This document shows, piece after piece, positions 3,073 to 27,773 of a stretch of DNA of 64,000 bases. Every line of letters starts with the position of its first letter. The stretch's first letter is position 1. The DNA comes from a virus: IMG/VR virus record IMGVR_UViG_3300049432_000151, positions 1-64,000 of that record; one strand, written 5' to 3'. Below the pieces are notes generated by a model. The model did no database searches. It was not told the origin of the DNA and saw only the letters and a list, made by a program, of their open reading frames with translations. A program made the translations under genes and the position numbers.

Positions 3073-3286
3073 GAGTCCTCCTATGGCGATTGTGCTCGTC
3101 ACTGGGCTCCCTCCTCTACAACCGGCAGTGAAGACGCAGCGCCGCTCTCCCGGAAGGTGTCGGCGCCGCGGGTCTCACGGTCTCCCGGGACGCGTGAGGA
3201 CCTGCCTTTCTCACTGGCGCCTCTTTGCACCGGAAGATGGAAGAGAGGGAGCTTCATGCGAACCTCCGGGAGTAGAATCCGCGGCC

Positions 3287-3658: not shown

Positions 3659-3663
3659 ACGCC

Positions 3664-4404: not shown

Positions 4405-4574
4405 GCCGCCACCCCCAATCGTCGAGCCTTGTACTCAAGCGCGCGCGCCGCGTAGCGGTTACGACTCGCCGCGTTGTTGCAGGCTCGGCAGCCTCCACGG
4501 TTGAGACGGTTAGCCTTCGTCATCCGGTGTAGACCGCCGATACAGATGACGAGACGGGGACGACCGCGTTTCAT
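4401..4574 (-). CDS. Small HNH-associated-type zinc protein
   Basis: 57 residues from ATG 4574, overlapping both neighbours by 4 nt. It has the pattern C-x-G-L-H...N...C-x-x-C, reminiscent of short phage proteins annotated as HNH-like or zinc-finger. It is very basic (Arg-rich C-terminal helix) and so probably binds nucleic acid. It sits between the methyltransferase and the DpdA-like gene, suggesting a role in DNA modification. No catalytic His-Asn-His set is complete. Confidence 0.6.
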   Translation of the reverse strand: MKRGRPRLVICIGGLHRMTKANRLNRGGCRACNNAASRNRYAARALEYKARRLGVAA

Positions 4575-5806
4575 GCGATCACCTCGCCTCTCCGCACTCG
4601 GTTGATCCGCGCAAAGATCCATTCCGCGACAACTGGAACAATGGCGTTTCCGATACCGCGGTAGCGTGCGCCATCCGGCCCTTCGATGCAGATCGGACAC
4701 AAGTCCAGTGATCGGGGTAACCCTGCAGGCGTTCGCACTCCAGCGGCGTCAACCGTCGCACCGAGGACGAGGTTGACGGGGCCGATGCCAGCGCTTCCGG
4801 CGGAGTCGTAGGTGCGCCCAGCGTTGCTGAGGATCGGGCGCGCGACGATGTAGTTTTCGCGCGACTCGTCAAACTTGTCGTTGCCGCCTGCGGTGAGAGG
4901 TTTGGCGACGACGAGTCGATTTCCCGCCGCTTCATCGACGCTGTAGCTACGGCCGCCGGTTCGTACGTCGACGCTGCCGGCGACGAGGAGATTGTGATGC
5001 TCGTCGCCGGCAGGTCCGCTGCTGCCCTTCGCCCACTTCGCGCTGATCGCCTGCTGGACGATCGCATGGTCACACTGCTGGTCGAGTGTGAAGCAGACGC
5101 CGCTCTCGGAGACTCCGAGCCCGTTCTGCTTTCGCACGGCTCCTCGAGTTGCGTTCTGGATGACGAAGGGCGTGTTGAGATCGGTCGTTCGCTGACCGCC
5201 CTGAGTGTTGCTTCCAAGCGTGCCGGCAACTTCCGTCCCCGCTTCGCCGCCCGACGCAGGATCCCGATCGCTGCGCGCTGGCTCAAAAAGAACCGCAGCG
5301 GCACGTTCCCACTCTCCAGAGTGATGTCCGACAAGGAACACGCGCTCGCGTCGTTGGGCGACGCCGAAAAATTGAGCGTTGAGAATCCGGTACGCGACGC
5401 CGTACCCGCACTGGACCAGCGAATCGAGGACGATCGCCATGTCGCGTCCGCGGTTCGAGGAAAGTAGCCCAGGGACGTTCTCAAAAACGAACCACTCAGG
5501 CCGAGACGCCTGAAGTATTCGTACAAGCTGGAAGAAAAGCCCGCTCCGCGAAGCCGCAAGTCCTCCTCGACGCCCGGCGACGCTGAGGTCCTGACACGGG
5601 AAACCGCCGGTGAGGATGTTGATGTGGGGCAGGTCTCGAGAGTCGCGGATGTCTCGATCGAAGGTGAGTCCCGGGTTTCCGAGTCGAGCGGCGTAAACAG
5701 CCCGCGCTGCATCGTTGATCTCGGCTGCCCAGACGGTCGACCAGCCGACTCGGCGAGCTGCAAGTCCGAACCCGCCGATGCCGCAGAACGCGTCGCCATG
5801 CTTCAC
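4571..5806 (-). CDS. DNA cytosine-C5 methyltransferase
   Basis: A 411-residue protein with the standard motifs. Motif I is AFCGIGGFGLA. Motif IV is GGFPCQDLS, with the catalytic Cys near residue 70. Motif VI is ENVPGLL, motif VIII is QRRERVFLVG, and a long variable region (about residues 180-350) leads to motif X RYRGIGNAIVP. It methylates cytosine in a specific DNA site, most likely to protect phage DNA from restriction; no cognate restriction enzyme is adjacent. GTG 5806 is used, overlapping the upstream stop. Its coupling to a DpdA-like gene suggests layered DNA protection. Confidence 0.93.
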   Translation of the reverse strand: MKHGDAFCGIGGFGLAARRVGWSTVWAAEINDAARAVYAARLGNPGLTFDRDIRDSRDLPHINILTGGFPCQDLSVAGRRGGLAASRSGLFFQLVRILQASRPEWFVFENVPGLLSSNRGRDMAIVLDSLVQCGYGVAYRILNAQFFGVAQRRERVFLVGHHSGEWERAAAVLFEPARSDRDPASGGEAGTEVAGTLGSNTQGGQRTTDLNTPFVIQNATRGAVRKQNGLGVSESGVCFTLDQQCDHAIVQQAISAKWAKGSSGPAGDEHHNLLVAGSVDVRTGGRSYSVDEAAGNRLVVAKPLTAGGNDKFDESRENYIVARPILSNAGRTYDSAGSAGIGPVNLVLGATVDAAGVRTPAGLPRSLDLCPICIEGPDGARYRGIGNAIVPVVAEWIFARINRVRRGEVIA

Positions 5807-5970
5807 GCCACCTCCGCGACTGGTGCGCAGGAGGGAATCGCGTCATTCGGCAGGCAATGGCAGTTCGGCACGCCACACCGCTGGCACTGCTCATCGCGGA
5901 ACACGCTCGGCTGCGTGCACCCAACGAAGGCATGCGGTTGAAGCTCAACAAGTTCTTCGGTCTGGTCCAT
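5803..5970 (-). CDS. Small cysteine-rich protein
   Basis: 55 residues from ATG 5970. Six cysteines and two histidines (GCTQP, CQRCG, NCHCL, SCAP) suggest one zinc site. The stop overlaps the GTG of the methyltransferase (GTGA), so the two are translated together. No family was recognised; phage early operons often carry such small zinc proteins. Confidence 0.6.
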   Translation of the reverse strand: MDQTEELVELQPHAFVGCTQPSVFRDEQCQRCGVPNCHCLPNDAIPSCAPVAEVA

Positions 5971-5976
5971 TCGAGG

Positions 5977-6001
5977 GAGCTGCCGACGTCGTCGGCAGCT
6001 C
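5977..6001. terminator. Perfect 11-bp hairpin
   Basis: GAGCTGCCGAC, a 3-nt loop and GTCGGCAGCTC form a perfect stem between the DUF2303 gene stop (6013) and the small cysteine-rich gene start (5970). There is no U-tract on either strand, so it may be a processing site, attenuator or operator rather than an intrinsic terminator. Confidence 0.5.
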
Positions 6002-6012
6002 GGACGACGGGA

Positions 6013-6834
6013 TCAGAAGCTGACGACGACGAGCAATTCCTTGAGACCGGTGCGCTCCATCGCCTCGTGGAAGGACTTCATCTCGTCCATCACCGCCTGG
6101 TCAGCAATCGCATCGATGAGCGGCGCGAAGAGCGTGACGATCGGGATGCCTTCCTTCTCAGTGAGGTCCACCTCGACGGGGATCTCGTAAGTCGCCTCAC
6201 TGCCTCGCGCGTACTGCACCTTCACGGTGATCGAAGACGGCAGCGTGGTTTCGGTTGTGCCGCCCTTCAGCGACAGGTTCACGTTGTAGCCGTTGGTGCT
6301 GTCGCCGCTGTCGTTGAGGATTGGCTCCGACGTCATCCGAATGTCCTTCGACACGACGAGCCGGCGGAACGACGCCATGACGAGCGGGTAATCGACGATC
6401 GACGGCGAGAGCGTCTGCAGCGCCCGGATGAGATCCTTGTGGCTCATCGGCTTGCCGAGCGCTGTCTTCAGCGCGAGCCACTGCTGCGACAGAACACGCT
6501 TGTAGGTGAACAGGTGCCGGCGATCGTCATCGTCAGGCGAGTACGTCGCACCGACACCAGTGAAGGTGACCGTCTGCTTCGCACCGTCTGCACGCTTGAA
6601 GCGTTTCGCGTACTCCGCGACGAGCTCCGCGAAAGACTCGACGGTGGAGACCGCGCCTTCGAACTTCACGAAGCGATCGATCTCGGTGTACTTCTGGTCG
6701 CGGTCGTCGTAGAGGAAGACGCGCCCGTCGGCGAGCGTGATCGTGGCTTCGCGCTTCGCGGCTGTGGCCGTGTTCTGGATGTGGGCGATTGCCTGCGTGA
6801 GGTTTTCGTAACCCTCAATGTCTTCGGTCTGCAT
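6013..6834 (-). CDS. DUF2303 family phage protein
   Basis: A 273-residue protein that I recognise as the phage DUF2303 type from its overall layout: ATITLADGRVF near the N-terminus, FAELVAEYAKRF, then a C-terminal domain with LIDAIADQAVMDEMKSF. The molecular function is unknown; homologues lie in early recombination/replication regions of temperate phages. It precedes a small partner gene (6862-7248) with a 27-nt gap. Start ATG 6834. Confidence 0.7.
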   Translation of the reverse strand: MQTEDIEGYENLTQAIAHIQNTATAAKREATITLADGRVFLYDDRDQKYTEIDRFVKFEGAVSTVESFAELVAEYAKRFKRADGAKQTVTFTGVGATYSPDDDDRRHLFTYKRVLSQQWLALKTALGKPMSHKDLIRALQTLSPSIVDYPLVMASFRRLVVSKDIRMTSEPILNDSGDSTNGYNVNLSLKGGTTETTLPSSITVKVQYARGSEATYEIPVEVDLTEKEGIPIVTLFAPLIDAIADQAVMDEMKSFHEAMERTGLKELLVVVSF

Positions 6835-6861
6835 CGTTGCTCCTGTGGCCGTGACGGCCCG

Positions 6862-7248
6862 TTACTTGGTGGTTGTGGCGGCGGGATCGGTGACGGGCTG
6901 CGGCTTCGTGCGGCCGCCAAACATGCCGGTCGGCTGCACGAAGTCCGGATCGTCCGTGAATAGCTCGCCGCGCTTCGTGCCGTAGAGGCGTACCGGCATC
7001 GGCTTCGGCTTGGGCAACTTCACGTCGACATCCGCGAAGATGTCGATCTGCCCCTCGTCCTCGGGGTTGAAGTCGATCTTGATCGTGAGCGACGCGCCTT
7101 TCGAGTGGCGTGACACCGCGGCGACGCACACCTGGACCGCGTTCTCGATCGTGTCTTTGAGAGTGGTAGTGGTCCCTTCGAAGCGGGTCTGGATCATCTG
7201 CTCCAGCAGTTCGAAGGTGATGGTCTGGGCTTCAGCTGTTTGCTGCAT
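6862..7248 (-). CDS. Hypothetical early protein next to DUF2303
   Basis: 128 residues. The N-terminal half is helical (about residues 8-45). The middle is a strand pair rich in Asp (IDFNPEDEGQIDIFADVDVK), followed by a Pro/Thr-rich tail. No catalytic motif is visible. Its position directly upstream of the DUF2303 gene suggests that the two products work together. The 141 nt between 7249 and 7389 show no gene that I can support. Confidence 0.55.
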   Translation of the reverse strand: MQQTAEAQTITFELLEQMIQTRFEGTTTTLKDTIENAVQVCVAAVSRHSKGASLTIKIDFNPEDEGQIDIFADVDVKLPKPKPMPVRLYGTKRGELFTDDPDFVQPTGMFGGRTKPQPVTDPAATTTK

Positions 7249-7389
7249 GGCTCTCCTCTGCTGCTGGTGCAGCGACTCAGTTCCGTGGTTGTCGATCGGC
7301 CGATCGATCGCGACGCCCGTCCTTTGCAGCAGCCCGCGCTCCTCAGGAGACCGAGCACTCGCACCGGGCGGCGCGACTCATCTGCCGAG

Positions 7390-7863
7390 CTAGGTCTTCC
7401 TCATGCGCCCCTCCTTCGTGATCGTCATGCCGGCATGTGGATGTGACCGGCGATTCGAGATCGGATGCAGGCGGTACCGCTCACCGGAGAGCGAGCAGTT
7501 CCCGAAGTAGTCGAGCGAAACCGATTGGCCGCAGGACGAGCAGTCGCCGACTCTCTGGTAGCGACAGATCTCACCGAGATCGTGGATGTCTCCGCATCGC
7601 AGCCGGCATCGTTCGACGCGATGACGATCGACGATCGAAGCTACGAACACGCGACCGTCAAGCGGCTCGACTCCGTAGAAGTCGCGGAGGAAATCAATTG
7701 GCCAAGTGACCACTGAGCCGGCGAAGGAAAGGACGCTACGCAGCGTGGCGACCAGTGACGCTGCGTAGCGGACAACGGAATGATGACTCAGGAGGGGAAC
7801 TGCGTTGGCAGCCTGAGTGGAAGAACCGGTCGCCGCAGGTGTGCGGAAGTTGATTACGGTCAT
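7390..7863 (-). CDS. Hypothetical cysteine-containing early protein
   Basis: 157 residues from ATG 7863, which overlaps the stop of the ASCH gene; the longer frame to 7935 lacks support. A hydrophobic stretch (about residues 25-55, ending SFAGSVVTWPIDFL) could be one membrane segment. It is followed by C-x3-C...C...CSSCG in the middle, probably a zinc site. Function unknown. Confidence 0.5.
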   Translation of the reverse strand: MTVINFRTPAATGSSTQAANAVPLLSHHSVVRYAASLVATLRSVLSFAGSVVTWPIDFLRDFYGVEPLDGRVFVASIVDRHRVERCRLRCGDIHDLGEICRYQRVGDCSSCGQSVSLDYFGNCSLSGERYRLHPISNRRSHPHAGMTITKEGRMRKT

Positions 7864-16118: not shown

Positions 16119-16360
16119 GCGACACCTCGCTGCGCGCGAAGCTGATGGAGTGAGAGAGGCTGAGAGACGAAGCGAGTCTCGCCGTCACATCCGATGAGCG
16201 TGACGACCGACCCAGCTCCAGAGCCCAGAGCGCTGTCGTACGCCGCGACCGCAGCGCACTGGTCGTCCTGGAACGCCACAACCGTGAACGCTCTGTCGGC
16301 GAACCGCGCCATCCGGAGAGGCAGCGGATTGAAGATCGTGACGTGGGCTTTCCGCTCCAT
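16115..16360 (-). CDS. Hypothetical early protein
   Basis: 81 residues, mainly strands (AHVTIFNPLPLRMARF, SVVTLIGCDGETRF). Second gene of the leftward operon, coupled by ATGA overlap to the Cro-like gene. No function assigned. Confidence 0.5.
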   Translation of the reverse strand: MERKAHVTIFNPLPLRMARFADRAFTVVAFQDDQCAAVAAYDSALGSGAGSVVTLIGCDGETRFVSQPLSLHQLRAQRGVA

Positions 16361-16626
16361 CAGACGGCCGCCTTTCGAAGCATTTCAGCGGGAGTGCGCG
16401 GGAAAATCCGACGGACGTAGCTCTCCGGCTGGTTCCACATTTCAGCCGTCACGGCGACTTCTTCCTCGCTCACGGGGGGCTGGTACCGGCGCGGTGCGAG
16501 GCGCTGGGAAAACTGGGCTGGCGTCAGCCCTAGCTTCTCAGCAATCTCGGATTTGAGCGGACGGGGTGTGTCGTCACTGTGTAGATAGAACCAGTGGTTC
16601 CAGTCCTTGGCGCGAGCTTGTCTCAT
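16360..16626 (-). CDS. Cro-like HTH regulator, first leftward gene
   Basis: 88 residues. Residues 25-45 (KSEIAEKLGLTPAQFSQRLA) form a helix-turn-helix of the XRE/Cro class. It is divergent from the S24 repressor gene and is the first gene after the consensus leftward promoter, so by analogy with lambda it is the Cro-type switch protein. ATG 16626 directly abuts the operator, which implies a very short leader. Alternatively it could be an accessory activator. Confidence 0.65.
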   Translation of the reverse strand: MRQARAKDWNHWFYLHSDDTPRPLKSEIAEKLGLTPAQFSQRLAPRRYQPPVSEEEVAVTAEMWNQPESYVRRIFPRTPAEMLRKAAV

Positions 16627-16666
16627 AAACGAGACTCAATTTAGGCAACGTGTCTCGTTTTGTCAA
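16627..16666 (-). promoter_or_regulatory. Leftward early promoter with repressor operator
   Basis: Read on the minus strand: TTGACA (16666-16661), a 17-nt spacer, then TAAATT, a near-consensus sigma-70 promoter about 10 nt from the Cro-like ATG. A perfect 9-bp inverted repeat, AAACGAGAC (16627-16635) and GTCTCGTTT (16652-16660), places one half-site in the spacer and the other downstream of the -10. A further GTCTCG half-site lies at about 16684-16689. This is very likely the operator bound by the divergent repressor. Confidence 0.85.
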
Positions 16667-16715
16667 TAGAAACTTCTTACGAAGTCTCGAATACGCGACT
16701 ACCGTGCGGGAAGGA

Positions 16716-17696
16716 ATGCCGAAAAGATCGTCGGGAACGTCGCCGCGCGGCAGTGGCGGAGCCGTGGCTACGAGACAAATTGCGCTCCGGCAACTGGCTG
16801 CTAAGCTCGCAGCGCTGATCCCATCCGGCGCGGTCGACGCAGCCGCTCACGAAACAGGATTGAACCGGTCGACGATCTATAAATGGGCGCGTGGTCAACA
16901 GCAACCCGGCGCTATCGACTTGGCCGTGCTGGCGAACTACCTCGGAGTGATGGTCTCGGACCTTCTCGAAGACAAGCCGCTTCCTCGTGAGGCGACGCCG
17001 TACGAACGGAACGCAGCGTACAGACACCTCATTAACAGTCTCGAGCAAGTATCAGAAGCCGACCGCGAAGAAGTGATTCGGCAAGCCCTGTGGGTAGTGG
17101 CGCGGATCCGAGTTTCAGCTCTGCCGACCATCGTGCCGCTCGCCGAGAACGTGATCGCGTTCCCGACGCAACCGGACGATAGTGGCGATTTTCCCCCGCC
17201 GCCGATCGAGCCCTCCGATTTCATCGAGAAAGACACGGACTACCCGCGGCCGCTGCACACGTGGGTTCTGGAAGTGCCGGAGGTGGCTGCAGGCCCGCCG
17301 CGCCATGACGACGTTCTCCTCCCTACCTCGGAAGCTGAAGTGCTGAACACGTTTCGAGAAGCCGTTCCGAGCACAGCTCGCGAAGTCCGCGACGACCGCG
17401 TCCGCGTCATCAAGATCTACGGGAACTCAATGCATCCGGTGTTGCGCAACGGTTGGAAGGTTCGGATCGACCCCGCGCGATCGCTGTTCAGGCCCGGCAA
17501 AGCGATCGTTATGGTCTACATCAAGGACGAAGGATCGACGATCGGCCTCCTAGCCGAAGATGGCAAAGGAGGACTGAAGATCGTTAAGAGGAACCCCGAT
17601 TACGGTGGACCCGTGGAGATCCCGTTACGTGCCGGCGAGTGGTACCCGGTCGGCACGGTGACCACGATCGTCGAGGCGCCGGTGGACATCGAATGA
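16716..17696 (+). CDS. Phage repressor, XRE HTH with S24/LexA-type peptidase
   Basis: 326 residues from ATG 16716; the start is uncertain because the purine run AAGGA is close to the ATG and a GTG lies further in. An XRE helix-turn-helix is near residues 42-75 (AAHETGLNRSTIYKW). A Pro-rich linker follows, then a C-terminal S24 domain with GNSMHPVLRNGWKV (Ser238) and IVKRN (Lys291), the autocleavage dyad. RecA-stimulated self-cleavage would induce the prophage. It faces the Cro-like gene across the operator, and its stop overlaps the start of the FG-GAP gene (ATGA). Confidence 0.92.
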   Translation: MPKRSSGTSPRGSGGAVATRQIALRQLAAKLAALIPSGAVDAAAHETGLNRSTIYKWARGQQQPGAIDLAVLANYLGVMVSDLLEDKPLPREATPYERNAAYRHLINSLEQVSEADREEVIRQALWVVARIRVSALPTIVPLAENVIAFPTQPDDSGDFPPPPIEPSDFIEKDTDYPRPLHTWVLEVPEVAAGPPRHDDVLLPTSEAEVLNTFREAVPSTAREVRDDRVRVIKIYGNSMHPVLRNGWKVRIDPARSLFRPGKAIVMVYIKDEGSTIGLLAEDGKGGLKIVKRNPDYGGPVEIPLRAGEWYPVGTVTTIVEAPVDIE

Positions 17697-18880
17697 AAGT
17701 CATCGCCGTCATGCTCGGCCTCATGCTGGCCGCGTCCACGCTGGCCGCTGAAGTGGCGTTCCGCGAGCCGGCGCTGCAAACCCCCAGCACGATCGATCTC
17801 GAAGCGCTGCAAGTGATCGACTTTGACTCGGACGGGGACCAGGACGTCTTGGCGATTGGCCGATGGCCGACTGGGTCCGGTCTTCTTCTGTACCAAAGCA
17901 ACAACGGTGTCTTGAACTGGTCTGCTCCGGCTCGGATGATCAATGTTCAGGGCCGAGTTACGCGGCTTCTGCCGGGCCGTGACGTCACTGGCGACGGCCG
18001 CATCGATCTCGTCGGAATCGTGGAGCAAGGCACGTTCTCGTTTCTTACTTCATGGCCGAACCCGGGAAACATCGGGTTCTCGTTCAGTTCGGGTTTCGAG
18101 CTGCCGACCGGCTACCGAGACGCAATAGTCACCGACATTACTGGGGATGAGGTTCCGGATGCGGTCGTGCTCACACCGCAGCAGGTGATTGTCCGAGCTG
18201 GTCTCCGCGACGGTGGTTATGCGGCCGAGGTGCGTTCCAACGTAACGACGAATGCGCGAGACTTCTTACCAACGGCGCTTGCCGCCGGCGACTTCAACGG
18301 CGACGGCAACGCCGACGTCGTCATCGCGTCGTCTGAGGCGCCAACGCAGAACGGATCCACGCGCGGAGACGTAACGATCTTGGCTGGCAGCCGCTCCGGC
18401 GCGCTCTCGCGGTTCGCCTCGTCGAATATCGCGGCCTCGCCGATCGCCGCGGCGAGTATGCGCAGCGCGCGAGGTCAAGTCGCGATTGTGACCTCTCATG
18501 CGCGCGGTATCGTTTCCACGGCGTTATTCACGACATCAGGGCTGATTTCGGCGAGCGGAACACACCACATGAATAGCTCTTCGGACTTGCGCCTGTTCGC
18601 TGTCGATGACGCGAATCTCGACGGGCAACCCGATGTCTGGTTGAGATCGCCCGACGCCGTTCTGGTCATTCCCGGCGCAAAGGATTTCCCAAGCGGCGAC
18701 GATCCTGTGGAGGTTCGCATTGGCGGCCTTGTGCTGACCGCTACCGCCGCGGACGTGAATGGGGACCGGCGCCCTGATCTCATCTTTGTAATCCGCGTCG
18801 GTTCTGTCGGCCGGGTTGCCGTCTATCTCAACACCTCGACCGTACCGGAACCGCCGCGCCGCAGAGCCATTCGGAAATGA
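17693..18880 (+). CDS. Secreted FG-GAP/VCBS repeat protein
   Basis: 395 residues. A Sec signal peptide is visible (KVIAVMLGLMLAASTLAAEV, cleavage near Ala19). Six calcium-loop repeats follow: DFDSDGDQD, DVTGDGRID, DITGDEVPD, DFNGDGNAD, DANLDGQPD and DVNGDRRPD. They are spaced as in FG-GAP beta-propellers, so the mature protein is an extracytoplasmic propeller, probably a binding or adhesion protein. It overlaps the repressor stop by 4 nt, implying expression in the lysogen. It may alter the host surface or block receptors; that is inference. Confidence 0.8.
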   Translation: MKVIAVMLGLMLAASTLAAEVAFREPALQTPSTIDLEALQVIDFDSDGDQDVLAIGRWPTGSGLLLYQSNNGVLNWSAPARMINVQGRVTRLLPGRDVTGDGRIDLVGIVEQGTFSFLTSWPNPGNIGFSFSSGFELPTGYRDAIVTDITGDEVPDAVVLTPQQVIVRAGLRDGGYAAEVRSNVTTNARDFLPTALAAGDFNGDGNADVVIASSEAPTQNGSTRGDVTILAGSRSGALSRFASSNIAASPIAAASMRSARGQVAIVTSHARGIVSTALFTTSGLISASGTHHMNSSSDLRLFAVDDANLDGQPDVWLRSPDAVLVIPGAKDFPSGDDPVEVRIGGLVLTATAADVNGDRRPDLIFVIRVGSVGRVAVYLNTSTVPEPPRRRAIRK

Positions 18881-18920
18881 CACGGCAGGCAACGCCGTCA
18901 ACGAGCGATAAAGGCCGCGC

Positions 18921-19622
18921 ATGACGCTTACCTGGGTAACGTTCAAGCAGTTCCGCGACTGGTTCGAGATCGCGTACTTCGTAGCCACGGTCCTGATGGC
19001 GCTCGCCGCGTGGGTTGCGTTGAAACACCTGAAGATCGCGAAGGCGACGCTCGAGCAGGCGCAGCGTGATCTGCAGGTCCGATCAAAACGTGAAGCGGTC
19101 TCTCTCGCTATCGAACTCTGCCGCGAGTATGGCACTGACTTCGGGAAGCGCTACGAGGCAGAAATGGTGGACCTGCACAAGAACGGTTTCGTCTTTTTCC
19201 GGTGGCCGATGAGCGACTTAGAGTTCGCGCATAGCTCAATCGTCAATCGTCAAGAGGCGGATCAGTGGGTGCTTCAGTTCACAAAGAATCGCGCCCTCGC
19301 GCTTCGAGCAGTGGCGATCCTCAACGAACTAGAAGCGTTCGCGCTGCCCTTCGCAGGCGGAGTCGCCGACGAAGAAGTGGCCTACCCTGTCATTGGGAAG
19401 TTGTTCATAGACGCCGTCCTCGGCTTCGCACCGTATCTGATCACGTTACGGGATGACAAAGACCGGAACATCATTTCCGGTAAGTTCCCCAACACCGTCG
19501 CTCTCTTCCGCCTGTGGTACGCGAGGTCTGGGCGCGCCGAGCTCGACGAAAAGCAAAAGCAGCTCGCTGCGGAGCAAAACAAGTTGCCCAAGCTCGAGCC
19601 AATCAAACCGATCGGGACATAG
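18921..19622 (+). CDS. Membrane-anchored coiled-coil protein (DUF4760-like)
   Basis: 233 residues. One transmembrane segment lies at about residues 15-35 (FEIAYFVATVLMALAAWVAL), then a coiled coil (IAKATLEQAQRDLQVRSKRE). A helical domain follows with AVAILNELEAFALPFAGGV, resembling DUF4760-type proteins. The C-terminus is a charged Lys/Gln helix. The gene lies 40 nt after the FG-GAP gene and 11 nt before the TIR gene, so it is probably the partner of the TIR protein. A membrane tether or sensor role is inferred. Confidence 0.6.
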   Translation: MTLTWVTFKQFRDWFEIAYFVATVLMALAAWVALKHLKIAKATLEQAQRDLQVRSKREAVSLAIELCREYGTDFGKRYEAEMVDLHKNGFVFFRWPMSDLEFAHSSIVNRQEADQWVLQFTKNRALALRAVAILNELEAFALPFAGGVADEEVAYPVIGKLFIDAVLGFAPYLITLRDDKDRNIISGKFPNTVALFRLWYARSGRAELDEKQKQLAAEQNKLPKLEPIKPIGT

Positions 19623-19633
19623 CGGAGTCCGAA

Positions 19634-20542
19634 GTGAAGATCTTCATAAGCTGGTCAGGTGATTCGTCGCGGCGCATCGCGGAGGCTCTCGACAAATGGC
19701 TACGCCGCGTCATTCAGGCCGTTAAGCCGTTCGTCTCTTTCGATCTCGAGAAGGGGAAGCGATGGAGCTCTGAGATCGCTGCCGAACTTGAGCAATCCAC
19801 GTTCGGCATCATCATTCTTACTCCGGACAATATCGGGCAGGAATGGCTCCTTTTTGAGTCCGGAGCGCTATCGAAGCGCATCGCGGACGCCCGCGTGTTC
19901 ACCTATCTCTGCGGCGGTTTGAAGCCACCCGACATCTCTGGTCCCCTCGCTCAATTTCAACATACGGTTTCGACCAAGGATGACACGCTTCGACTCGTGG
20001 GAAATATCAACGCGCTGCTGGGCGCGGCCGCGCTTCGGGAAGAGGACCTTGCCGAGACATTCGAGCGATGGTGGCCTGAACTTGAGGCCGCCCTTGTGGA
20101 GGCGCTGAGGACCACTCCAAAACCTCAAAAGCGCTCGTCCGACGATCTGCTATCAGAAGTGCTCACCATCGTTCGCGACCTTCAGCGCCGGGCCGGACCG
20201 CGACGCGGCGCGAGCATATTGATCGACAGCGCTTTATCCGCCCCGCCAGCGCCGGTTCTGGGCATCGCAACAATTAAGATCGAGGCACAAGTTAGCAATA
20301 GACGCGAAGCGATCCTCTCCTGTGGTCTTTGCCACGGGCAAGTCGGAATTCACTTCTACGAAGGAGACGGTGAGCCGAAGCTGAACGACGTGCTCGGACT
20401 GTTCCACTACGACAAATGTCCAGGAGTGCCCATCGCTGGCGGACACATCGGAATAGTCGTGATTCGTGAGGAAGACAAGCCAGAGTACGGTATGTACGCG
20501 GCGCCGCGGCGAGACACGTCCGAGTACGCTTCAACTCATTGA
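19634..20542 (+). CDS. TIR-domain protein (putative NADase defence effector)
   Basis: 302 residues from GTG 19634. Residues 1-150 are a TIR fold: KIFISWSGDSSRRIAEALDK (betaA and helix), FVSFDLEKGKRW, FGIIILTPDNIGQEW and LLFESGAL, where Glu75 fits the catalytic Glu of NAD-hydrolysing TIRs. Residues 190-302 are a separate domain with CGLCHGQVGIHFYEGDG and FHYDKCPG, perhaps a ligand or zinc site. Bacterial TIR proteins deplete NAD or make signal nucleotides during phage infection. Its place in the repressor transcription unit suggests defence of the lysogen against other phages. Confidence 0.8.
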   Translation: MKIFISWSGDSSRRIAEALDKWLRRVIQAVKPFVSFDLEKGKRWSSEIAAELEQSTFGIIILTPDNIGQEWLLFESGALSKRIADARVFTYLCGGLKPPDISGPLAQFQHTVSTKDDTLRLVGNINALLGAAALREEDLAETFERWWPELEAALVEALRTTPKPQKRSSDDLLSEVLTIVRDLQRRAGPRRGASILIDSALSAPPAPVLGIATIKIEAQVSNRREAILSCGLCHGQVGIHFYEGDGEPKLNDVLGLFHYDKCPGVPIAGGHIGIVVIREEDKPEYGMYAAPRRDTSEYASTH

Positions 20543-20551
20543 GATGAGTTG
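20532..20551. terminator. Hairpin over the TIR gene stop codon
   Basis: CAACTCAT, loop TGAG, ATGAGTTG: a perfect 8-bp stem that includes the TIR stop codon. No T-run follows, so it may be a weak terminator or mRNA-stabilising stem at the end of the repressor-TIR unit. Confidence 0.45.
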
Positions 20552-20617
20552 CGAACGCTGCGTAGCTCGGCACGCGCCGCAGTGTCGCCCTGATTCCGCA
20601 GCCGGTAGTGTCCAGTC

Positions 20618-20660
20618 GTGCGTCGCCGCTTCGTCTTCTGCGCCGGCACCGCGACCGAAG
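20618..20660 (+). pseudogene. Truncated copy A of the repeated small ORF
   Basis: From GTG 20618 the sequence encodes RRRFVFCAGTAT, the same start as the intact copy at 25110 and the broken copy at 22198. It then departs from the family and stops at 20701. The match ends about 15 nt before the 3' end of the convergent hydrolase gene, as if the hydrolase had been inserted into or recombined with this ORF. Confidence 0.6.
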
Positions 20661-20675
20661 GCCCCCGACTTACTC

Positions 20676-21905
20676 TTAGCGTCCTTCACAAACTCTTTTG
20701 AACCGAAGGATAGCGGACTGCTCGCCGACGATTCCGAGCGTGGCTGCCCACTTGTTCCGCCTGAACTCAAAAACGCACGGCTGCCCAGACGACACGTTCA
20801 AACACTGAAAGAAATTGCCGTCGGCGGTGATCCGTATGTAACCCACCAAGCCGAGCCGAACATCTATCGGCTGGGCGTAAGCGATGATGTCGTCTCCGCA
20901 TGTCGCAATCGAAGCACCGGCGATCGACGTTTCGAGAGCGCCGCTGCACCGGCTGTCTTCCGGCGCGGGGCAAGGGCGGGGCGGCTGAATTGGTACCGCG
21001 ACAGGTTGCGCCACCGCCGGTGATGCCGCGGGTTGGATAAGCGGCTCGAATCTTTGCTGATAAAAATCGACCAAAAGATCGTGTGTGGGATGATCTGGCG
21101 TGGTTGGTTTGACCACAGAGGAGTGATTCGTTCCGGGAAGCAACGTAGCCGGGCCGAAGTAGCGCCCCGCCGATTCGGCTGTCACAACTCGTTGCTTGGT
21201 GAGGAAGGGAATATACCGATAGTGAAGGATGAAATGATGTTCGTATGCTTCCATCCCCGTCAATCGCGGTATTCGCTTCAGATCAACCAAGCGTTTGAAT
21301 CGCGCGTCCAAATCCTTCAACAAATCACTACCCCATTGAAGATCCTGACCGGCCTCGTTCTCATACATCTCGGCGAGCCATTTCAACGAGTCCGCATTGT
21401 TCGATCCGTATGAGGGCGACGCGATCAGTAAAAGTCCTACCGTTTTGTCTTTGAAGTCCGGCCAATCTTCCGTTAGAAGGTAGCGCACAACCACGCCGCC
21501 GAGGCTGTGCGCCACGAACAAAATGTTGCGCGCATCCATCACTCTTCGGCCGAGCTGATCACGACGCTGTAGGCTGCGACTTACGGCATCGGCAGCGGCG
21601 CGGACACTGAAGTCAGAAGAGTCGGCCGCCGTGTAGTACCCGGCCAGAAAGATTCCGCTCTCTTTAAAACGCAGGTCTTTTTGTACGAGCTGCGGCCAGT
21701 ACGCTGGCGTCTTCCCTTCAGCGTACCAGGCATCTCCACTGTCCGACAGCAACCCGTGTACGTAGACGATCACGGTGTTCTTGCTTCGAGCCTCGAACCA
21801 CACGTTGTTCGGACGTGGTACTGCTTTCGAATAAACATCTCCTGCGGTCACTATCATCAGGAGAATCAGCGCGGATACGAATCGGTACGGTCTCGCGTAA
21901 GTCAC
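20676..21905 (-). CDS. Exported or anchored alpha/beta hydrolase (DUF676/PGAP1-like)
   Basis: 409 residues if started at GTG 21905, which has GGGTGAG upstream; an in-frame start at 21953 is also possible. A signal peptide or anchor (VSALILLMIVTAGDVYS) opens the protein. The lipase core has VIVYVHGLLSDSGDAW (oxyanion region), FVAHSLGGVVVRYLL (nucleophile Ser134) and the His region TNHSSVVKP. These match esterases of the DUF676/SesB type, used as membrane-attacking effectors in some defence systems. The C-terminal 100 residues hold cysteine pairs and strands of unknown function. It is flanked by broken copies of one small ORF. Confidence 0.78.
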   Translation of the reverse strand: MTYARPYRFVSALILLMIVTAGDVYSKAVPRPNNVWFEARSKNTVIVYVHGLLSDSGDAWYAEGKTPAYWPQLVQKDLRFKESGIFLAGYYTAADSSDFSVRAAADAVSRSLQRRDQLGRRVMDARNILFVAHSLGGVVVRYLLTEDWPDFKDKTVGLLLIASPSYGSNNADSLKWLAEMYENEAGQDLQWGSDLLKDLDARFKRLVDLKRIPRLTGMEAYEHHFILHYRYIPFLTKQRVVTAESAGRYFGPATLLPGTNHSSVVKPTTPDHPTHDLLVDFYQQRFEPLIQPAASPAVAQPVAVPIQPPRPCPAPEDSRCSGALETSIAGASIATCGDDIIAYAQPIDVRLGLVGYIRITADGNFFQCLNVSSGQPCVFEFRRNKWAATLGIVGEQSAILRFKRVCEGR

Positions 21906-22197
21906 AATCTCACCCTCAGACGAGCGTGGCTTGACGCGTCTCGATCGAGACATTCATGCCGGAACATCTCGACCGAAGCTTCACTCCTTCGACTGGGGAT
22001 ACTTTGGAGTGTGCGTCCGACGCTAAATCCCTACCCTAGTCAGTGACATTGTCCACCACTTCGACGCCGAGCGGACGCCGTGGACCTGGGAGCCCCGTCT
22101 GAGTTACGCCAACGGTGTGCCCTCCGGCCGATCTGCCCTGCGAAGAACGTCACCGAGCGCAGTGTCCGCGAGCGCGACGCCGTCGTAGCCTTTCGCG

Positions 22198-22426
22198 ATG
22201 CTTCGACGCTATGTCTTCTGCGCGGGTACCGCGACGTTGAGCGCAGCCGGTGGGCAACATCGTCGAGAACTGTGGATTGGCGTCGAGCTCGAGTCTCCGC
22301 GTGGGCGTCGACGTGCGAGCCTTCTCACGAGAGCATGGCTATGACCTCGTTCCCGCGGAGGCCTTCAGCGCCGAGGAGTTGGCCTCGATCGGTGTCGGCA
22401 CCTTCGCTCACCTTCAAATCGTGTAG
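22198..22426 (+). pseudogene. Frameshifted copy B of the repeated small ORF
   Basis: ATG 22198 opens LRRYVFCAGTAT...HRRELWIGVE, then a small insertion near 22285-22300 shifts the frame. The continuation from 22301 reads VDVRAFSREHGYDLVP and ELASIGVGTFA, which aligns along its length with the intact copy at 25110-25358. The rest of the gap 21906-22515 shows no other supportable gene. Confidence 0.7.
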
Positions 22427-22515
22427 CGACTCCTTAGGAGGAAGCAACCGACCCTGACGACAGGTAAATACTGCACCGCCTAGTATCACCGCGGCCGTTG
22501 TTGATCGCCCCGTAC

Positions 22516-24783
22516 TTACTGAGCCGCCTGACTGCCGGCTTCGACCGTAGCGGTGACGGTGTAGGTAACCGGCCCCGGATAACCCTGTACGACGATCCAC
22601 CAAAGTCCGGCCGCCGGGTTGCGGTGGATACACTGCTCCGTTCGCGCACGTCCGCTTGCGGCACAGACGCGGCGATTACCTTTTGGTGGCTCGGCAAAGT
22701 TGGTATACAGGTCAACGTCCGATGAGCCTTGAACGTCGACGCGCAGGGTCTTTGCTTGGTTTGGGACTGTGATCGCATAGCTGCGCGCGCTATTGCGCGG
22801 CAGGGTTTCGCCAACTCTCGCTACGCCGCTCGTGAGGTCGAGGTACGGACATGACGAGGTGAAGTCGACCGTCTTCGTAGTCGGGATACTCACCGTCTGC
22901 GTCGTCGGCGAGAACTCGCAGAACGGCTTTGTCAGCGTTACTCCGTAGGTGCCCGCGACAAGGTCCGTCACGGTGTACACGCCAGTATCACCATTCGCCG
23001 TGAAGCTTAGCGGCGTGGCGCCTTTAGTCAAAGTAATGCTTGTATATGGCGACGGAACGCGAATTTGCAAGGAGTACGTCAAGCGCGCGGTCACCGTTGG
23101 ACTGACATCCGCCGCGGCTGCGTGTAGCGCGATCCACCAGCGACCGGGACGCGGAACCTCTGCTTCGCACATCCTTTCCCCGACGCCGGACACCCGGCAA
23201 GGAGTGGAAGCGCCTGTTGCTTTGGAGCCGAAAGTTGCAAACAGCTCTCCGCCAGCGGCGTCGCTACTTGTGACATTCAACCCTTGAGTTCCCGGAGGCA
23301 CATCGATCCAATAATATCGCCACCGACCGCGTTCGAGCCGCTGGCCTGCGGCTGGGTTTCCATCGAAGAGTGGAGTATCCACTTCCGCTCTAATTTCTTT
23401 CGGCGCCGGTGCAGGCAACTCCGCCGGCGCTGGGCTGAACCAGTTAGTGAAGGCCGTGCGGAACATGCCGTCGCGACGGTCGGAGAGCAGTAACACGGCG
23501 ATGACCAGCGCGCCTGCGATTGCGATCGGCAGGCCCCCTGCCCAATTGACTTTGGCGCCCGCGGATGGCGGGATCGCGGTCTCTGGTGCCGGCGCAGATT
23601 CAGCCAACTTCGAGCGAAAAAGCCACATGACAGCGACAAGCGCGAGAACAGCCCAAGAGACGATTCCGACCGTCGAGAAACCCGGGATGTCGAACCACGC
23701 TGCAGCAAGCCGGACGAGCCAGCCGGTCAAAGCACACGGCACCGCTGCGGCTACCGCTATTTGATACGAGCGCTGCAGCGTTCGCTGTCCAGTCATATCG
23801 GTACGCCACATCTTCGCGAGTGCCGCCGTCCCCAACGGCAGGATCAGGAAAAGGAGGAAGCCGACAAGCACTGTTCCAGCGACGAACGGTGCTCGAGCTG
23901 GGTCGATGAGGGTTGTCGGTGCAGTCGACGTGCGTAGATATTCAACGAGCTTCGGCGCGAAAGCTCGCGCGCCCAGAAGCAAGGTGCCGGCGGCAACCGC
24001 CGTCAGAAGGTACTGAAGGAGATATTTCGCTTGAGATCTAAATCCGCGTAAGAAGTCGTCATAGATGCGCTGGGCAACGATGGCGATCACGGCACCGACA
24101 GCTGCGGGAAAACGCACCGGTACCTGGGCAAGCGCGCTAGGAACCGCGATGGTGGTCATCCACACATCAGGGACCGCATCAAATGAACCCTGCGCGCGAC
24201 TTCGGACGATTGCAATGATGACCCAGGTGATGACTATCGGCAAGAGGAGGAGTAGGCGGATGTCTGCGAATCGATGAAGCGCTGCGATTAGTTTGACATC
24301 AGCGGCCGGGTACAGCGTTCTAGGCAAGGCGCGCCCGAGACTATCGAGTAACAGGATAACCAAGTAGGCGACCTGAGCGCTCGCGAGCCATCGCGGGATT
24401 GTGGAGTTGTTCTTCTCGTCGCTTGTATGGACGTCCACTACATATGCAGCGATAGTCGCGTGAGCCATCAGATACGCGAAGTAAACCTCCGGTCGCGTCG
24501 GCCGGTGGAGCACTAGTAGCGCCGTGGGAAAAGCGAGGAAAGCGACACCCAGAAGGGAGCCGACGCTGGATGCGAATGACGTGGCTGTACTCGCAACCAC
24601 GTGCAACACAACTGCGACTAGAAGAGTGGCGGTAGTAACGTCAACGCCAATCGCGTCGGCACGATCGCGTGAAAATCCGGAGATATAGACCGCCAGCGTG
24701 ATCCACAGTACCGCGTACACACAGATCACTGCGACGGTGTAGTCGCTGCGGAGCCAGGTGCTGGACTTCGGTTTCGCTGCCAC
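22516..24783 (-). CDS. Polytopic membrane protein with C-terminal pre-peptidase-like domains
   Basis: 755 residues from GTG 24783. Residues 1-440 contain about ten to twelve hydrophobic segments with no transporter signature that I know. Residues 480-755 are extracytoplasmic and beta-rich. Two copies of a PPC-like unit are visible, around RGRWRYYWIDVPPGTQGLNV and SARSYAITVPNQAKTLRV, each ending in GRWWIALHA or GLWWIVVQG. A carboxypeptidase-regulatory-like unit (YTSITLTKGATPLSF) lies between them. Function unknown. Its place in the moron region between repeated ORF copies suggests lysogenic conversion or defence at the envelope. Confidence 0.7.
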   Translation of the reverse strand: MAAKPKSSTWLRSDYTVAVICVYAVLWITLAVYISGFSRDRADAIGVDVTTATLLVAVVLHVVASTATSFASSVGSLLGVAFLAFPTALLVLHRPTRPEVYFAYLMAHATIAAYVVDVHTSDEKNNSTIPRWLASAQVAYLVILLLDSLGRALPRTLYPAADVKLIAALHRFADIRLLLLLPIVITWVIIAIVRSRAQGSFDAVPDVWMTTIAVPSALAQVPVRFPAAVGAVIAIVAQRIYDDFLRGFRSQAKYLLQYLLTAVAAGTLLLGARAFAPKLVEYLRTSTAPTTLIDPARAPFVAGTVLVGFLLFLILPLGTAALAKMWRTDMTGQRTLQRSYQIAVAAAVPCALTGWLVRLAAAWFDIPGFSTVGIVSWAVLALVAVMWLFRSKLAESAPAPETAIPPSAGAKVNWAGGLPIAIAGALVIAVLLLSDRRDGMFRTAFTNWFSPAPAELPAPAPKEIRAEVDTPLFDGNPAAGQRLERGRWRYYWIDVPPGTQGLNVTSSDAAGGELFATFGSKATGASTPCRVSGVGERMCEAEVPRPGRWWIALHAAAADVSPTVTARLTYSLQIRVPSPYTSITLTKGATPLSFTANGDTGVYTVTDLVAGTYGVTLTKPFCEFSPTTQTVSIPTTKTVDFTSSCPYLDLTSGVARVGETLPRNSARSYAITVPNQAKTLRVDVQGSSDVDLYTNFAEPPKGNRRVCAASGRARTEQCIHRNPAAGLWWIVVQGYPGPVTYTVTATVEAGSQAAQ

Positions 24784-24849
24784 GGATTTTTTCCGTCATC
24801 ATACGCCACCGTCTGGTCAGACAGCGACGGTTCCGAATCGGCTTCGCAA

Positions 24850-24868
24850 ACCGGTCGTGTCGACCGGT
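24850..24868. repeat. 8-bp hairpin upstream of the membrane protein gene
   Basis: ACCGGTCG, loop TGT, CGACCGGT is a perfect inverted repeat 67 nt upstream of the GTG of the minus-strand membrane protein gene. It could be an operator or a terminator for the opposite strand. The wider stretch 24784-24935 shows no gene. Confidence 0.4.
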
Positions 24869-24935
24869 GTCACTGGCGCCACTGGCGCGGTCCTTCAATG
24901 GGGCAGAAGGCACTGGACTGACCGTGGCCTTCGAA

Positions 24936-25014
24936 TGCTACGATGATCCCCGAATCGTGGATGGGCTGAGCGACTAACCTTCCCGAGCTTTCGGTCAGCT
25001 CATTGCGTAGATTC
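24936..25014 (+). repeat. Direct repeat R1 with extended -10 and inverted arms
   Basis: This 79-nt block is closely matched by R2 (25753-25828). It opens with TGCTACGAT (extended -10-like), followed by CGAATCGTGGATGGGCTGA, and closes with TTTCGGTCAGCTCAT. The arms ATGGGCTGAGC (24961) and GGTCAGCTCAT (24993) form an imperfect hairpin. It may provide a promoter with a structured leader for the small ORF at 25110, or be a recombination site. Confidence 0.65.
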
Positions 25015-25109
25015 GTGTCAGCTAACTCCTGGCTTTACCCGGCCGAAGCCTCTGATTTCCGGCGCGTACCGCAGTTCAACCGCGCAATGGTCCATCGCAT
25101 GATCGCTTC

Positions 25110-25358
25110 GTGCACCGCCGCTTCGTCTTCTGCGCCGGCACGGCCACCATCAGAGCCGGTGGCCACGAACACCGCCGAGAATTATGGATCGGAGTGGAAG
25201 TTCGGCGTGACGTCGATGTCCGCGCATTCTCGCGAGATCACGGTTATGACCTGGTGCCGGCGGACGACTTCACCGCTGACGAGCTGGCGTCGATCGGCGT
25301 CCGGACGTTCGCTCTCCTGCACATCGACGGGGACTGCGGAAATACTTCCTCACCGTAG
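25110..25358 (+). CDS. Intact copy C of the repeated small ORF
   Basis: 82 residues from GTG 25110. It reads HRRFVFCAGTATIRAGGHEH, then RRELWIGVEV and DVDVRAFSRDHGYDLVPADD. I do not recognise the family. The strand-rich, polar sequence with one Cys looks folded. Two decayed relatives lie at 20618 and 22198, which shows that the family has spread or been duplicated within this region. It lies about 95 nt downstream of R1, which may carry its promoter. Confidence 0.55.
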   Translation: MHRRFVFCAGTATIRAGGHEHRRELWIGVEVRRDVDVRAFSRDHGYDLVPADDFTADELASIGVRTFALLHIDGDCGNTSSP

Positions 25359-25408
25359 TAGACTTGCAGCAGACGCAACGGTAGCTCGGCCCTACTCGCG
25401 CCCACCTA

Positions 25409-25752: not shown

Positions 25753-25828
25753 TGTTACGATTGCCGCGAATCGTGGATGGGCTGACCTACTGACCCTGCC
25801 CGAGTTTTCGGTCAGCTCATCCAGATTC
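25753..25828 (+). repeat. Direct repeat R2
   Basis: Second copy of R1, beginning TGTTACGAT near the HTH gene stop. The arms ATGGGCTGACC (25777-25787) and GGTCAGCTCAT (25810-25820) match at 10 of 11 positions around a 22-nt loop. The repeat sits just before the stop of a convergent small gene, where no plus-strand gene needs a promoter, so it looks like a duplication footprint or a binding site. Confidence 0.65.
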
Positions 25829-26035: not shown

Positions 26036-27124
26036 TCAGCGCACAACGCGCAGCGCCGTCTGATCTTTGAAATAGATGTCTCGCAGCCTTGACTCGACCG
26101 TCATGAGGTTGTGCTCGAAGTCGTCGGCGGCCCAGCCGAGGTCCGTCTCGCACGTCGTGATCACCTTCTGCATCAGCGACGGCTGCTCGAGCGTTATGTC
26201 GAGTTCACGCGGTTCCCTCTTCCGGAATCCAAGAGCGGAAAACTTTGACCACATGTAGCGCTGCTGGTTTGCGGTCAGTTTGCCCAGATCACCGGCACGT
26301 TTCAGCAGCGATGCCATGGATACCTTCCAGTACGGTTTCAAGCGGGCAAGCTGCGGCAACGTGATGTTGTTCAGGCTCGTGCGAATGTCGACCGCAGGCA
26401 TCAAGAACTCCGCTGCGAACGCGTCTGCCTGCGCCTCCATCTCCGGGTTTGGGTGCGTGTGCATGACCAAGTGGCCGACCTCATGCGCAAGCGAATAGCG
26501 GTACCGGTCTCCCGGGAGACAGGAGTTCAGAAAGAACATCGGCGGCAAGCCTGGGTACCAGCGGCTAACCGCATCGAGGAGCGTCGTCTCAAAATCGAGC
26601 ACGAACACCAGGCCACCTGCGCCCTCAACAAGTTGAGTGAGGTTGCTCACCGGGCCCGACGGCACGCGCCACATGGCGCGGACGTGGCGTGCTATCTCAA
26701 CGGCGTCCCGCGATTCGAGCGGGTCGTCGACGTCGATCAGCGGAAAGACATAGTCGCTCTCGAAGTCGATCGATTTGAGAATCTCTTCGAGGTGAATCCG
26801 AATGGTGTCAATGAGCGCGTGAAGGCGCGCGAGCTGCCTCTTCGGCATGATCGCGCGCTTACGGTGGTAAATCTCCGTCACCCCTGTGCCGCTGTGCCGC
26901 CGGCCTGGCCGAGTAAAAAAGGCGGGTGTCCGCCCAAGCTGTGCGCTCAGCCGCTCGAGGAAAGCGTTATCAACGCCAGTCTCCTGAGCTTCCATCCTCG
27001 ACAGCTTTCCTTGAGCGATCTCCAACCGCGCAGCGAGCTCCGTCTGCGTCAAGCCATCGGCTTCGCGCGCGAGCACGAGCATTTCTGGATTGATCGAGAT
27101 GCGATCGCCGAACAAGTCAGCCAT
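26036..27124 (-). CDS. XRE HTH - ImmA/IrrE metallopeptidase (antitoxin-like)
   Basis: 362 residues from ATG 27124. Residues 8-60 are an XRE helix-turn-helix (LTQTELAARLEIAQGKLSRM). The M78/ImmA-IrrE domain has LAHEVGHLVMH (His214, Glu215, His218) and AQADAFAAEFLMP (third metal ligand and AxxFA-type helix). Such proteins repress their own operon and cleave partners or repressors. The gene overlaps the upstream partner by 8 nt (ATGGCTGA). The layout matches HTH-IrrE toxin-antitoxin or defence pairs such as RosmerTA, although identity with that system is unproven. Confidence 0.83.
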   Translation of the reverse strand: MADLFGDRISINPEMLVLAREADGLTQTELAARLEIAQGKLSRMEAQETGVDNAFLERLSAQLGRTPAFFTRPGRRHSGTGVTEIYHRKRAIMPKRQLARLHALIDTIRIHLEEILKSIDFESDYVFPLIDVDDPLESRDAVEIARHVRAMWRVPSGPVSNLTQLVEGAGGLVFVLDFETTLLDAVSRWYPGLPPMFFLNSCLPGDRYRYSLAHEVGHLVMHTHPNPEMEAQADAFAAEFLMPAVDIRTSLNNITLPQLARLKPYWKVSMASLLKRAGDLGKLTANQQRYMWSKFSALGFRKREPRELDITLEQPSLMQKVITTCETDLGWAADDFEHNLMTVESRLRDIYFKDQTALRVVR

Positions 27125-27773
27125 TCTTCTTCTCGTCTGATTTGGATTTGAAGGGCACAACCTTCGCTGCGTCCTTCTTTACTCTTACGGTCGTCTGCGG
27201 CGCTGAATGCCGGGGTGGCATCGCGGAGATCGGCTGCGTGCGCGCGTTCGGGTAAGGAAGATCGATCGAGTAGGCGACGCTGTCGACGCCAACCTGCTTC
27301 GGGAAGACGACGTGAGCGGATGAGATCGCGGTACCGAAACGATCCAGGATGTAGCCAGCATCTAGACAAGCTGTGCTTTCAAGGAAGCCAGCCATGTCGC
27401 CATTTGCGAATTGCAGCGACTGCTGAGTCTCAATGTTCCGCGACCGCTTGTGAGAATCGAGCTTTTTGAAACGTACGCAAGCCGCGCCGTCGATGACCAA
27501 CAGGAACATACCGCGCCGTTCCACAAATTGAATCCCGGCGACACCGTCGAACCGGCGCTTCACAGCGGCGACGATAAAATCGCGAATGTCAGAAGCCTGA
27601 CTGCGAGCGTGAAGCTTGATCCTCTGCTCCTCCGGCAGGCGAAAATACTCGTCGAACCCTTCATGAACGCAGTTGGCGATCTCCTGAAGATGCGGCCGGA
27701 GGTGCCGTTTGACCTTCTCTCTCGGTATCCAGACTTTGACGTCACCCTTCACTTTTACCTCTCTCTCTAACAT
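27117..27773 (-). CDS. Partner of the XRE-ImmA/IrrE protein (toxin candidate)
   Basis: 218 residues. Strand/helix fold with RRFDGVAGIQFVERRGMFLL and VIDGAACVRFKKLDS in the middle. The C-terminal 60 residues are a Lys/Pro-rich disordered tail (SAMPPRHSAPQ, then VVPFKSKSDEKK). No catalytic motif was recognised. It is the first gene of a two- or three-gene unit and overlaps the ImmA/IrrE gene by 8 nt. This organisation, with an autoregulatory-looking promoter, is that of a toxin-antitoxin module; which gene is the toxin is an inference. Confidence 0.6.
   Translation of the reverse strand: MLEREVKVKGDVKVWIPREKVKRHLRPHLQEIANCVHEGFDEYFRLPEEQRIKLHARSQASDIRDFIVAAVKRRFDGVAGIQFVERRGMFLLVIDGAACVRFKKLDSHKRSRNIETQQSLQFANGDMAGFLESTACLDAGYILDRFGTAISSAHVVFPKQVGVDSVAYSIDLPYPNARTQPISAMPPRHSAPQTTVRVKKDAAKVVPFKSKSDEKKNG

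What the first reader, a model, noticed from the sequence alone, without database searches (positions are those of the whole stretch)
16716..20542. Repressor-linked FG-GAP / membrane protein / TIR unit: a lysogen defence candidate
The S24 repressor gene overlaps the FG-GAP gene (ATGA), and two further same-strand genes follow with short gaps, ending in a TIR protein with the catalytic Glu (Glu75). Prophage-state expression of a TIR effector plus a membrane partner suggests protection of the host against other phages. The pairing of a TIR protein with a DUF4760-like membrane protein is not a defence system that I can name.
Basis: partly seen in the sequence, partly recalled or inferred. Interest (0 to 1): 0.75.

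Follow-up and report, generated by a model that had tools for sequence, protein, structure and literature searches.

The report
Prophage immune gene behind its repressor
A dormant-phage genome, probably from an acidobacterium, carries an immune-type TIR enzyme and a small membrane protein in the gene string behind its own repressor, so it probably protects its host cell from other phages, as a related TIR-plus-membrane system does in E. coli, but with a different membrane partner.

Summary
Four same-strand genes run 16716-20542: S24/HTH repressor, secreted FG-GAP protein (ATGA overlap), a one-helix membrane protein (DUF4760-like, below Pfam's cut-off) and a TIR protein (GTG start 19634; Glu75 invariant in 155 of 155 relatives). 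No convincing terminator interrupts them. The only found relative of this repressor (L228) has the same ATGA overlap, but to a different secreted gene. Its interval up to the next, possibly equivalent small gene is 1.3 kb against 7.7 kb here, so the TIR lies in a variable cargo slot tied to the repressor. The TIR is the family used by the tested prophage system of P2-like phage AC1 (PADLOC 2TM-1TM-TIR), whose lysogens resist lambda; cousins also sit beside TM-macro Thoeris effectors. This locus has neither AC1 membrane protein and no ThsA. Pairing of its membrane protein with a TIR was seen nowhere else: none of about 160 TIR loci and none of 41 DUF4760-type loci. Membrane neighbours are no commoner beside these TIRs than beside other genes (15% against 13%). 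Most likely this is a TIR-based lysogen defence with a non-standard or incidental membrane partner: a new variant of a known kind.

The parts
16360..16626 (-). Cro-position small gene, first gene of the divergent early operon
   Evidence: ORF, divergent from the repressor; no PHROG or Pfam match
16629..16776 (.). Operator-like array: four CGAGAC/GTCTCG sites (16630, 16652, 16684, 16771), two forming an inverted pair AACGAGAC..GTCTCGTT, over a minus-strand sigma-70-like promoter (16666-16638, TTGACA-17-TAAATT)
   Evidence: densest cluster in the 64-kb window: 4 sites in 150 bp, 0.15 expected; promoter match 10 of 12 (0.7 expected by chance)
16716..17696 (+). CI-like repressor, HTH plus S24 domain
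   Evidence: Pfam and PHROG; 56% aligned identity to the L228 repressor
17693..18880 (+). Secreted FG-GAP repeat protein, ATGA overlap with the repressor
   Evidence: FG-GAP_3 2.5e-17, five stretches; signal peptide MKVIAVMLGLMLAASTLAA
18921..19622 (+). One-helix membrane protein, helical, remotely DUF4760-like
   Evidence: hydrophobic helix residues 16-35; PF15956 19.5 bits, cut-off 25; one relative found, L171, 28%
19634..20542 (+). TIR protein, 302 aa, GTG start
   Evidence: PADLOC TIR-TM 1.4e-59, phrog_13899 7.1e-64, TIR_2 3.6e-7
19634..20203 (+). TIR domain and following helices, residues 1-190
   Evidence: mean pLDDT per 10-residue block 79-98; fold matches to SPARTA TIR-APAZ, RUN1 and RPP1 TIRs
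19856..19858 (+). Codon of putative catalytic Glu75 in EWLLFESGALSK
   Evidence: E in 155 of 155 relatives
20204..20539 (+). C-terminal extension, residues 191-302, specific to this protein
   Evidence: no relative in 169 TIR loci; pLDDT mostly under 50; reading frame open throughout
17693..25408 (.). Variable cargo slot: 7.7 kb here against 1.3 kb in L228 between the repressor and the next small gene
   Evidence: comparison with L228

Best explanation
This is a lysogen-expressed defence cargo of a temperate phage, probably of Acidobacteriota. Shown by sequence: the four genes form one directon led by the repressor, the second gene overlaps the repressor stop, and the slot holds different cargo in a related phage. 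Inferred: in the prophage state the repressor transcript reads on through FG-GAP, the membrane gene and the TIR gene, so TIR protein is present and idle. Inferred from the family: on infection by another phage the TIR assembles, its Glu75 site cleaves NAD+, and the cell stops or dies before the second phage matures. Inferred and least sure: the product acts on the one-helix membrane protein, whose cytosolic helical domain would sense it and disturb the membrane, as proposed for AC1 and shown in part for TM-macro Thoeris. The TIR's own C-terminal extension may be the infection sensor or brake. The FG-GAP protein is exported and is most likely separate cargo.
For: Family: PADLOC TIR-TM 1.4e-59; 42-43% identity over residues 1-176 to the AC1 TIR, whose three-gene locus is PADLOC 2TM-TIR, 1TM-TIR and TIR-TM; AC1 lysogens and plasmid carriers resist lambda and LF82_P8, and the cloned system also acts against P2 (PMC9122126). 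Glu75 and other core residues invariant in 155 relatives. Fold matches to the TIRs of SPARTA, RUN1 and RPP1. Three relatives sit beside ThsA_Macro genes. Expression logic: ATGA overlap repeated in L228 with a different gene, 40- and 11-nt gaps, no credible terminator, operator array over the divergent early promoter. At least 122 stretches of viral contigs encode TIRs of this family.
Against: No transcript data. The membrane protein is not related to AC1's partners or to ThsA. No other locus pairs it with a TIR. Membrane neighbours are not enriched beside this TIR family (23 of 155 against 41 of 308), and 68 of 155 have no close same-strand neighbour. The TIR branches outside the AC1 clade in the tree. 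Integrase and resolvase models found nothing in the record, so lysogeny rests on the repressor region and a chromosome-like right flank.
Confidence: 0.47

Rival explanations
1. The TIR acts alone, as a solo NAD+-consuming abortive-infection protein, and the membrane gene is separate cargo that happens to lie before it.
For: 68 of 155 relatives have no close same-strand neighbour. Same-family TIRs stand as lone genes between Q and the holin genes in phage mEp390 and an E. coli prophage. The membrane partner is not found with other TIRs; membrane neighbours are at background.
Against: The 11-nt gap suggests translational coupling of the two genes; the one tested relative with a known phenotype (AC1) was tested as a three-gene unit.
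Confidence: 0.3
2. The membrane protein is a brake or anchor of the TIR (antitoxin-like), holding it inactive at the membrane until infection.
For: It precedes the TIR with an 11-nt gap, the order of many antitoxin-toxin pairs (general knowledge); one N-terminal helix then helical cytosolic part.
Against: No direct evidence; relatives of the TIR do without such a gene.
Confidence: 0.1
3. The cargo is not for defence. The four genes, with the neighbouring lipase and PPC-domain membrane protein, change the host surface or physiology, or are decaying passengers.
For: The slot in L228 holds only secreted and membrane proteins without PADLOC match; FG-GAP and lipase products are exported types; the cargo zone has degenerate repeats.
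Against: TIR core residues are fully kept and its closest tested relative is a phage-defence protein; the reading frame is intact.
Confidence: 0.13

Closest known systems
2TM-1TM-TIR of P2-like phage AC1 (Rousset et al. 2022, PMC9122126)
   Same: Prophage-carried cargo; same TIR family (42-43% identity over residues 1-176; PADLOC TIR-TM); TIR is the last gene after membrane protein(s); lysogen-protecting phenotype known for AC1
   Different: No 2TM gene; the single one-helix protein here is not related to the AC1 1TM or 2TM proteins; different C-terminal part of the TIR; sits behind the repressor, not in the P2 hotspot; outside the AC1 clade in the tree
Thoeris with TM-macro ThsA effector (PMC11204291)
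   Same: TIR makes a nucleotide from NAD+ that acts on a membrane effector (model); three relatives of this TIR sit next to ThsA_Macro genes
   Different: No macro domain and no ThsA here; the membrane protein has one helix and a DUF4760-like helical part; this TIR does not match the ThsB_TIR Pfam model
Solo phage TIR genes, e.g. phage mEp390 (phrog_13899)
   Same: Same family, carried as an extra gene in a temperate phage
   Different: Stand alone between Q and the holin genes; function not known to me from experiment
lambda cI-rexA-rexB (from general knowledge)
   Same: Exclusion genes, one a membrane protein, co-transcribed with the repressor in the lysogen
   Different: RexA and RexB are not TIR or DUF4760 proteins; comparison is of expression logic only, no sequence test made

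Membership tests
2TM-1TM-TIR (PADLOC / Rousset) | TIR-TM protein present | tested here: met
   PDLC03016 E 1.4e-59, but over residues 1-181 of 302 and model positions 1-189 of 293 only
2TM-1TM-TIR (PADLOC / Rousset) | 1TM-TIR protein present | tested here: not met
   P0003 has no PADLOC match at E <= 1; no similarity to the AC1 1TM protein by BLASTP or hhalign
2TM-1TM-TIR (PADLOC / Rousset) | 2TM-TIR protein present | tested here: not met
   the directon holds no two-helix gene, only repressor, FG-GAP, one-helix protein and TIR; P0003 not similar to the AC1 2TM protein
2TM-1TM-TIR (PADLOC / Rousset) | Protection of lysogens against other phages | not testable with these tools
   needs plaque assays
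Thoeris, TM-macro type | ThsA with macro domain beside the TIR | tested here: not met
   no ThsA_Macro match in P0001-P0003 nor in the neighbouring cargo genes scanned
Thoeris, TM-macro type | TIR with conserved catalytic Glu | tested here: met
   Glu75 in 155 of 155 relatives
DUF4760 (PF15956) | Match above the curated cut-off | tested here: not met
   19.5 bits, cut-off 25; hhalign against transmembrane DUF4760 proteins E 0.0028, probability 11%
NADase TIR domains | TIR fold with a conserved Trp-x-x-(x)-Glu helix motif | tested here: met
   EWLLFESGAL; confident model of residues 1-190, PDB matches to SPARTA, RUN1, RPP1
NADase TIR domains | NAD+ cleavage | not testable with these tools
   needs enzyme assay
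Temperate phage with CI-type control | S24/HTH repressor divergent from early genes, with operator sites | tested here: met
Temperate phage with CI-type control | Integrase or resolvase | tested here: not met
   PF00589 and PF00239 absent from the 85-kb record, which may be incomplete

The most novel reading that the evidence does not exclude
A two-gene TIR signalling system unlike those named so far: the TIR makes a nucleotide from NAD+ that is sensed by a one-helix DUF4760-like membrane effector, a new effector class for TIR immunity, switched on as part of the repressor transcript of a prophage.
Probability: 0.28. Interest if true: 0.62.

Novelty: new variant of a known kind. Interest (0 to 1): 0.42.

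Why it matters
If the pair works together, it adds a new membrane partner to TIR immunity and shows that one TIR family is combined with several unrelated membrane proteins (AC1 2TM and 1TM, TM-macro ThsA, a 125-127 aa two-helix protein in four viral contigs, and this one). It would also give a repressor-coupled, rex-like defence slot in a phage of a poorly studied phylum. If the pair does not work together, it is another carrier of a widespread prophage TIR.

Tried and rejected
Looked for a second case of the pair: tblastn of P0003 over 169 TIR loci, no relative; TIR queries over 41 DUF4760-type loci, none; P0003 in plasmid and phage records, none; viral contigs by protein, alignment and two DNA patterns, none confirmed; P0003 or A4 in Acidobacteriota and Pseudomonadota genomes gave one relative, L171, with no TIR beside it. 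Empty genome searches may be lossy. Rejected that membrane neighbours are enriched beside this TIR family. Rejected remote homology of P0003 to the AC1 partners. The structure of P0003 from a single sequence was too poor to search (pLDDT 55). Profile of the TIR family found no PDB chain by sequence. TerL relatives were too distant to show the repressor slot. DUF4760 is nearly absent from the paper library (one paper).

Full report
Observation. Translation and ORF listing confirm the four genes and their coordinates. The repressor (16716-17696) and the FG-GAP gene (17693-18880) overlap as ATGA; gaps of 40 and 11 nt follow. The third protein has one hydrophobic helix near its N-terminus (residues 16-35) and reaches DUF4760 only at 19.5 bits against a cut-off of 25. 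The fourth is a TIR protein with a GTG start at 19634, preceded by GCGGAG. Glu75 lies in EWLLFESGALSK.

Setting. The window is the first 64 kb of an 85,049-base virus record. Genes before 16.6 kb run leftwards and include a helicase loader, an exonuclease and a methyltransferase; large terminase, portal and other head genes run rightwards from about 32 kb. Between the repressor and the leftward genes lies the densest cluster of CGAGAC/GTCTCG sites in the window, over a good minus-strand promoter match. That is the layout of a CI-type immunity region. Past the window come endolysin, a C5-methyltransferase beside a GHKL-type restriction gene, and then chromosome-like genes: a GGDEF response regulator and an M13 peptidase that is 67% identical to one from an Acidobacteriota genome. 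Integrase and resolvase models found nothing. Lysogeny is therefore likely but not proven, and the host phylum is a fair guess.

The slot behind the repressor. Only one viral contig with a related repressor was found, L228. It has the same ATGA overlap, but to a different secreted protein, followed by a 95-aa protein with another overlap, and a small gene 1.3 kb on that may correspond to the one at 25409 here. The genes further right are shared (29280 with 11529; terminase with up to 76% identity over one segment). No TIR of this family was found in that record. So the stretch from 17.7 to about 25.4 kb here is replaceable cargo, and its first gene is tied to the repressor in both phages. With one comparator, this is suggestive rather than general.

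The TIR family. PADLOC names it TIR-TM (1.4e-59). 80 genome loci and 80 viral loci were fetched; 122 viral stretches had a confirmed relative. In 155 distinct proteins Glu75, Gly77, Trp7, Phe4 and others are invariant or nearly so. The confident model of residues 1-190 matches the TIRs of SPARTA, RUN1 and RPP1. Residues 191-302 are unlike any relative and are modelled poorly.

What the family does. The P2-like phage AC1 carries a TIR of this family after two membrane proteins; its lysogens, and cells with the three genes on a plasmid, resist lambda and LF82_P8, and the system also acts against P2 (PMC9122126). The authors suggest that the TIR makes a nucleotide that activates the membrane proteins. 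The AC1 genes match PADLOC 2TM-TIR, 1TM-TIR and TIR-TM. Three other relatives sit next to ThsA_Macro genes; TM-macro Thoeris effectors are reported to oligomerise on binding nucleotides (PMC11204291). Yet 68 of 155 family members have no same-strand neighbour within 150 nt, and membrane neighbours are no commoner (23 of 155) than beside other genes of the same loci (41 of 308). These counts rest on a simple ORF caller and a hydropathy threshold.

The membrane protein. It is not similar to either AC1 partner. Its one relative found, L171 in an Acidobacteriota genome, shares the helix and the motif LNxLEAFAxPFAxGVADEE and has no TIR beside it. Pfam DUF4760 proteins from Acidobacteriota that were read are mostly short and without a helix; none of 41 DUF4760-type loci has a TIR of this family within about 1.5 kb. 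So the partnership rests on gene order and an 11-nt gap alone.

Verdict. A TIR-based defence cargo expressed with the repressor is the best reading. Whether the membrane protein is effector, brake or bystander is open. It is not a member of 2TM-1TM-TIR or Thoeris, because defining genes were tested and not found, but it may work like them.

Noticed in passing
window 20616-20656, 22204-22421, 25108-25326: Dispersed repeat in the cargo zone: a 220-nt element in two copies (74% identical) and a 41-nt fragment (90%), each next to a cargo gene; it encodes a DVRAFSREHGYDLVPAEAFSAEELASIGV-type stretch. May mark past cassette exchange.
   Followed up: partly
window 24948-25003 and 25764-25820: 57-nt direct repeat, 88% identical, around the 25409 gene.
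   Followed up: partly
window 20676-21953 and 22516-24783: Two leftward cargo genes: an alpha/beta hydrolase with signal-like N-terminus and a 755-aa multi-helix protein with a PPC domain.
   Followed up: partly
window 26036-27160: Second regulator: XRE HTH plus Peptidase_M78 (ImmA/IrrE type), PADLOC RmrA 3.9e-58, so the phage may have two control circuits.
   Followed up: no
L172 10015-13036 (record 74.0-77.0 kb): C5-cytosine methyltransferase beside a GHKL-type type II restriction gene, close to the chromosome-like flank.
   Followed up: partly
L108, L135, L137, L154: Four viral contigs carry a conserved 125-127 aa two-helix protein (52-99% identical) upstream of a same-family TIR, with gaps of 60-73 nt where called (L135, L137, L154); L135's copy has no PADLOC or Pfam match. 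A better-supported new TIR-membrane pair than the one in the window.
   Followed up: partly
L009 (Gloeothece verrucosa plasmid) 4001-7842: Same-family TIR directly before cas10 of a type III-B CRISPR locus.
   Followed up: no
L132 (viral contig) 899-5807: Two ThsA_Macro genes, a ThsB-like TIR and a same-family TIR in one locus of a viral contig.
   Followed up: partly
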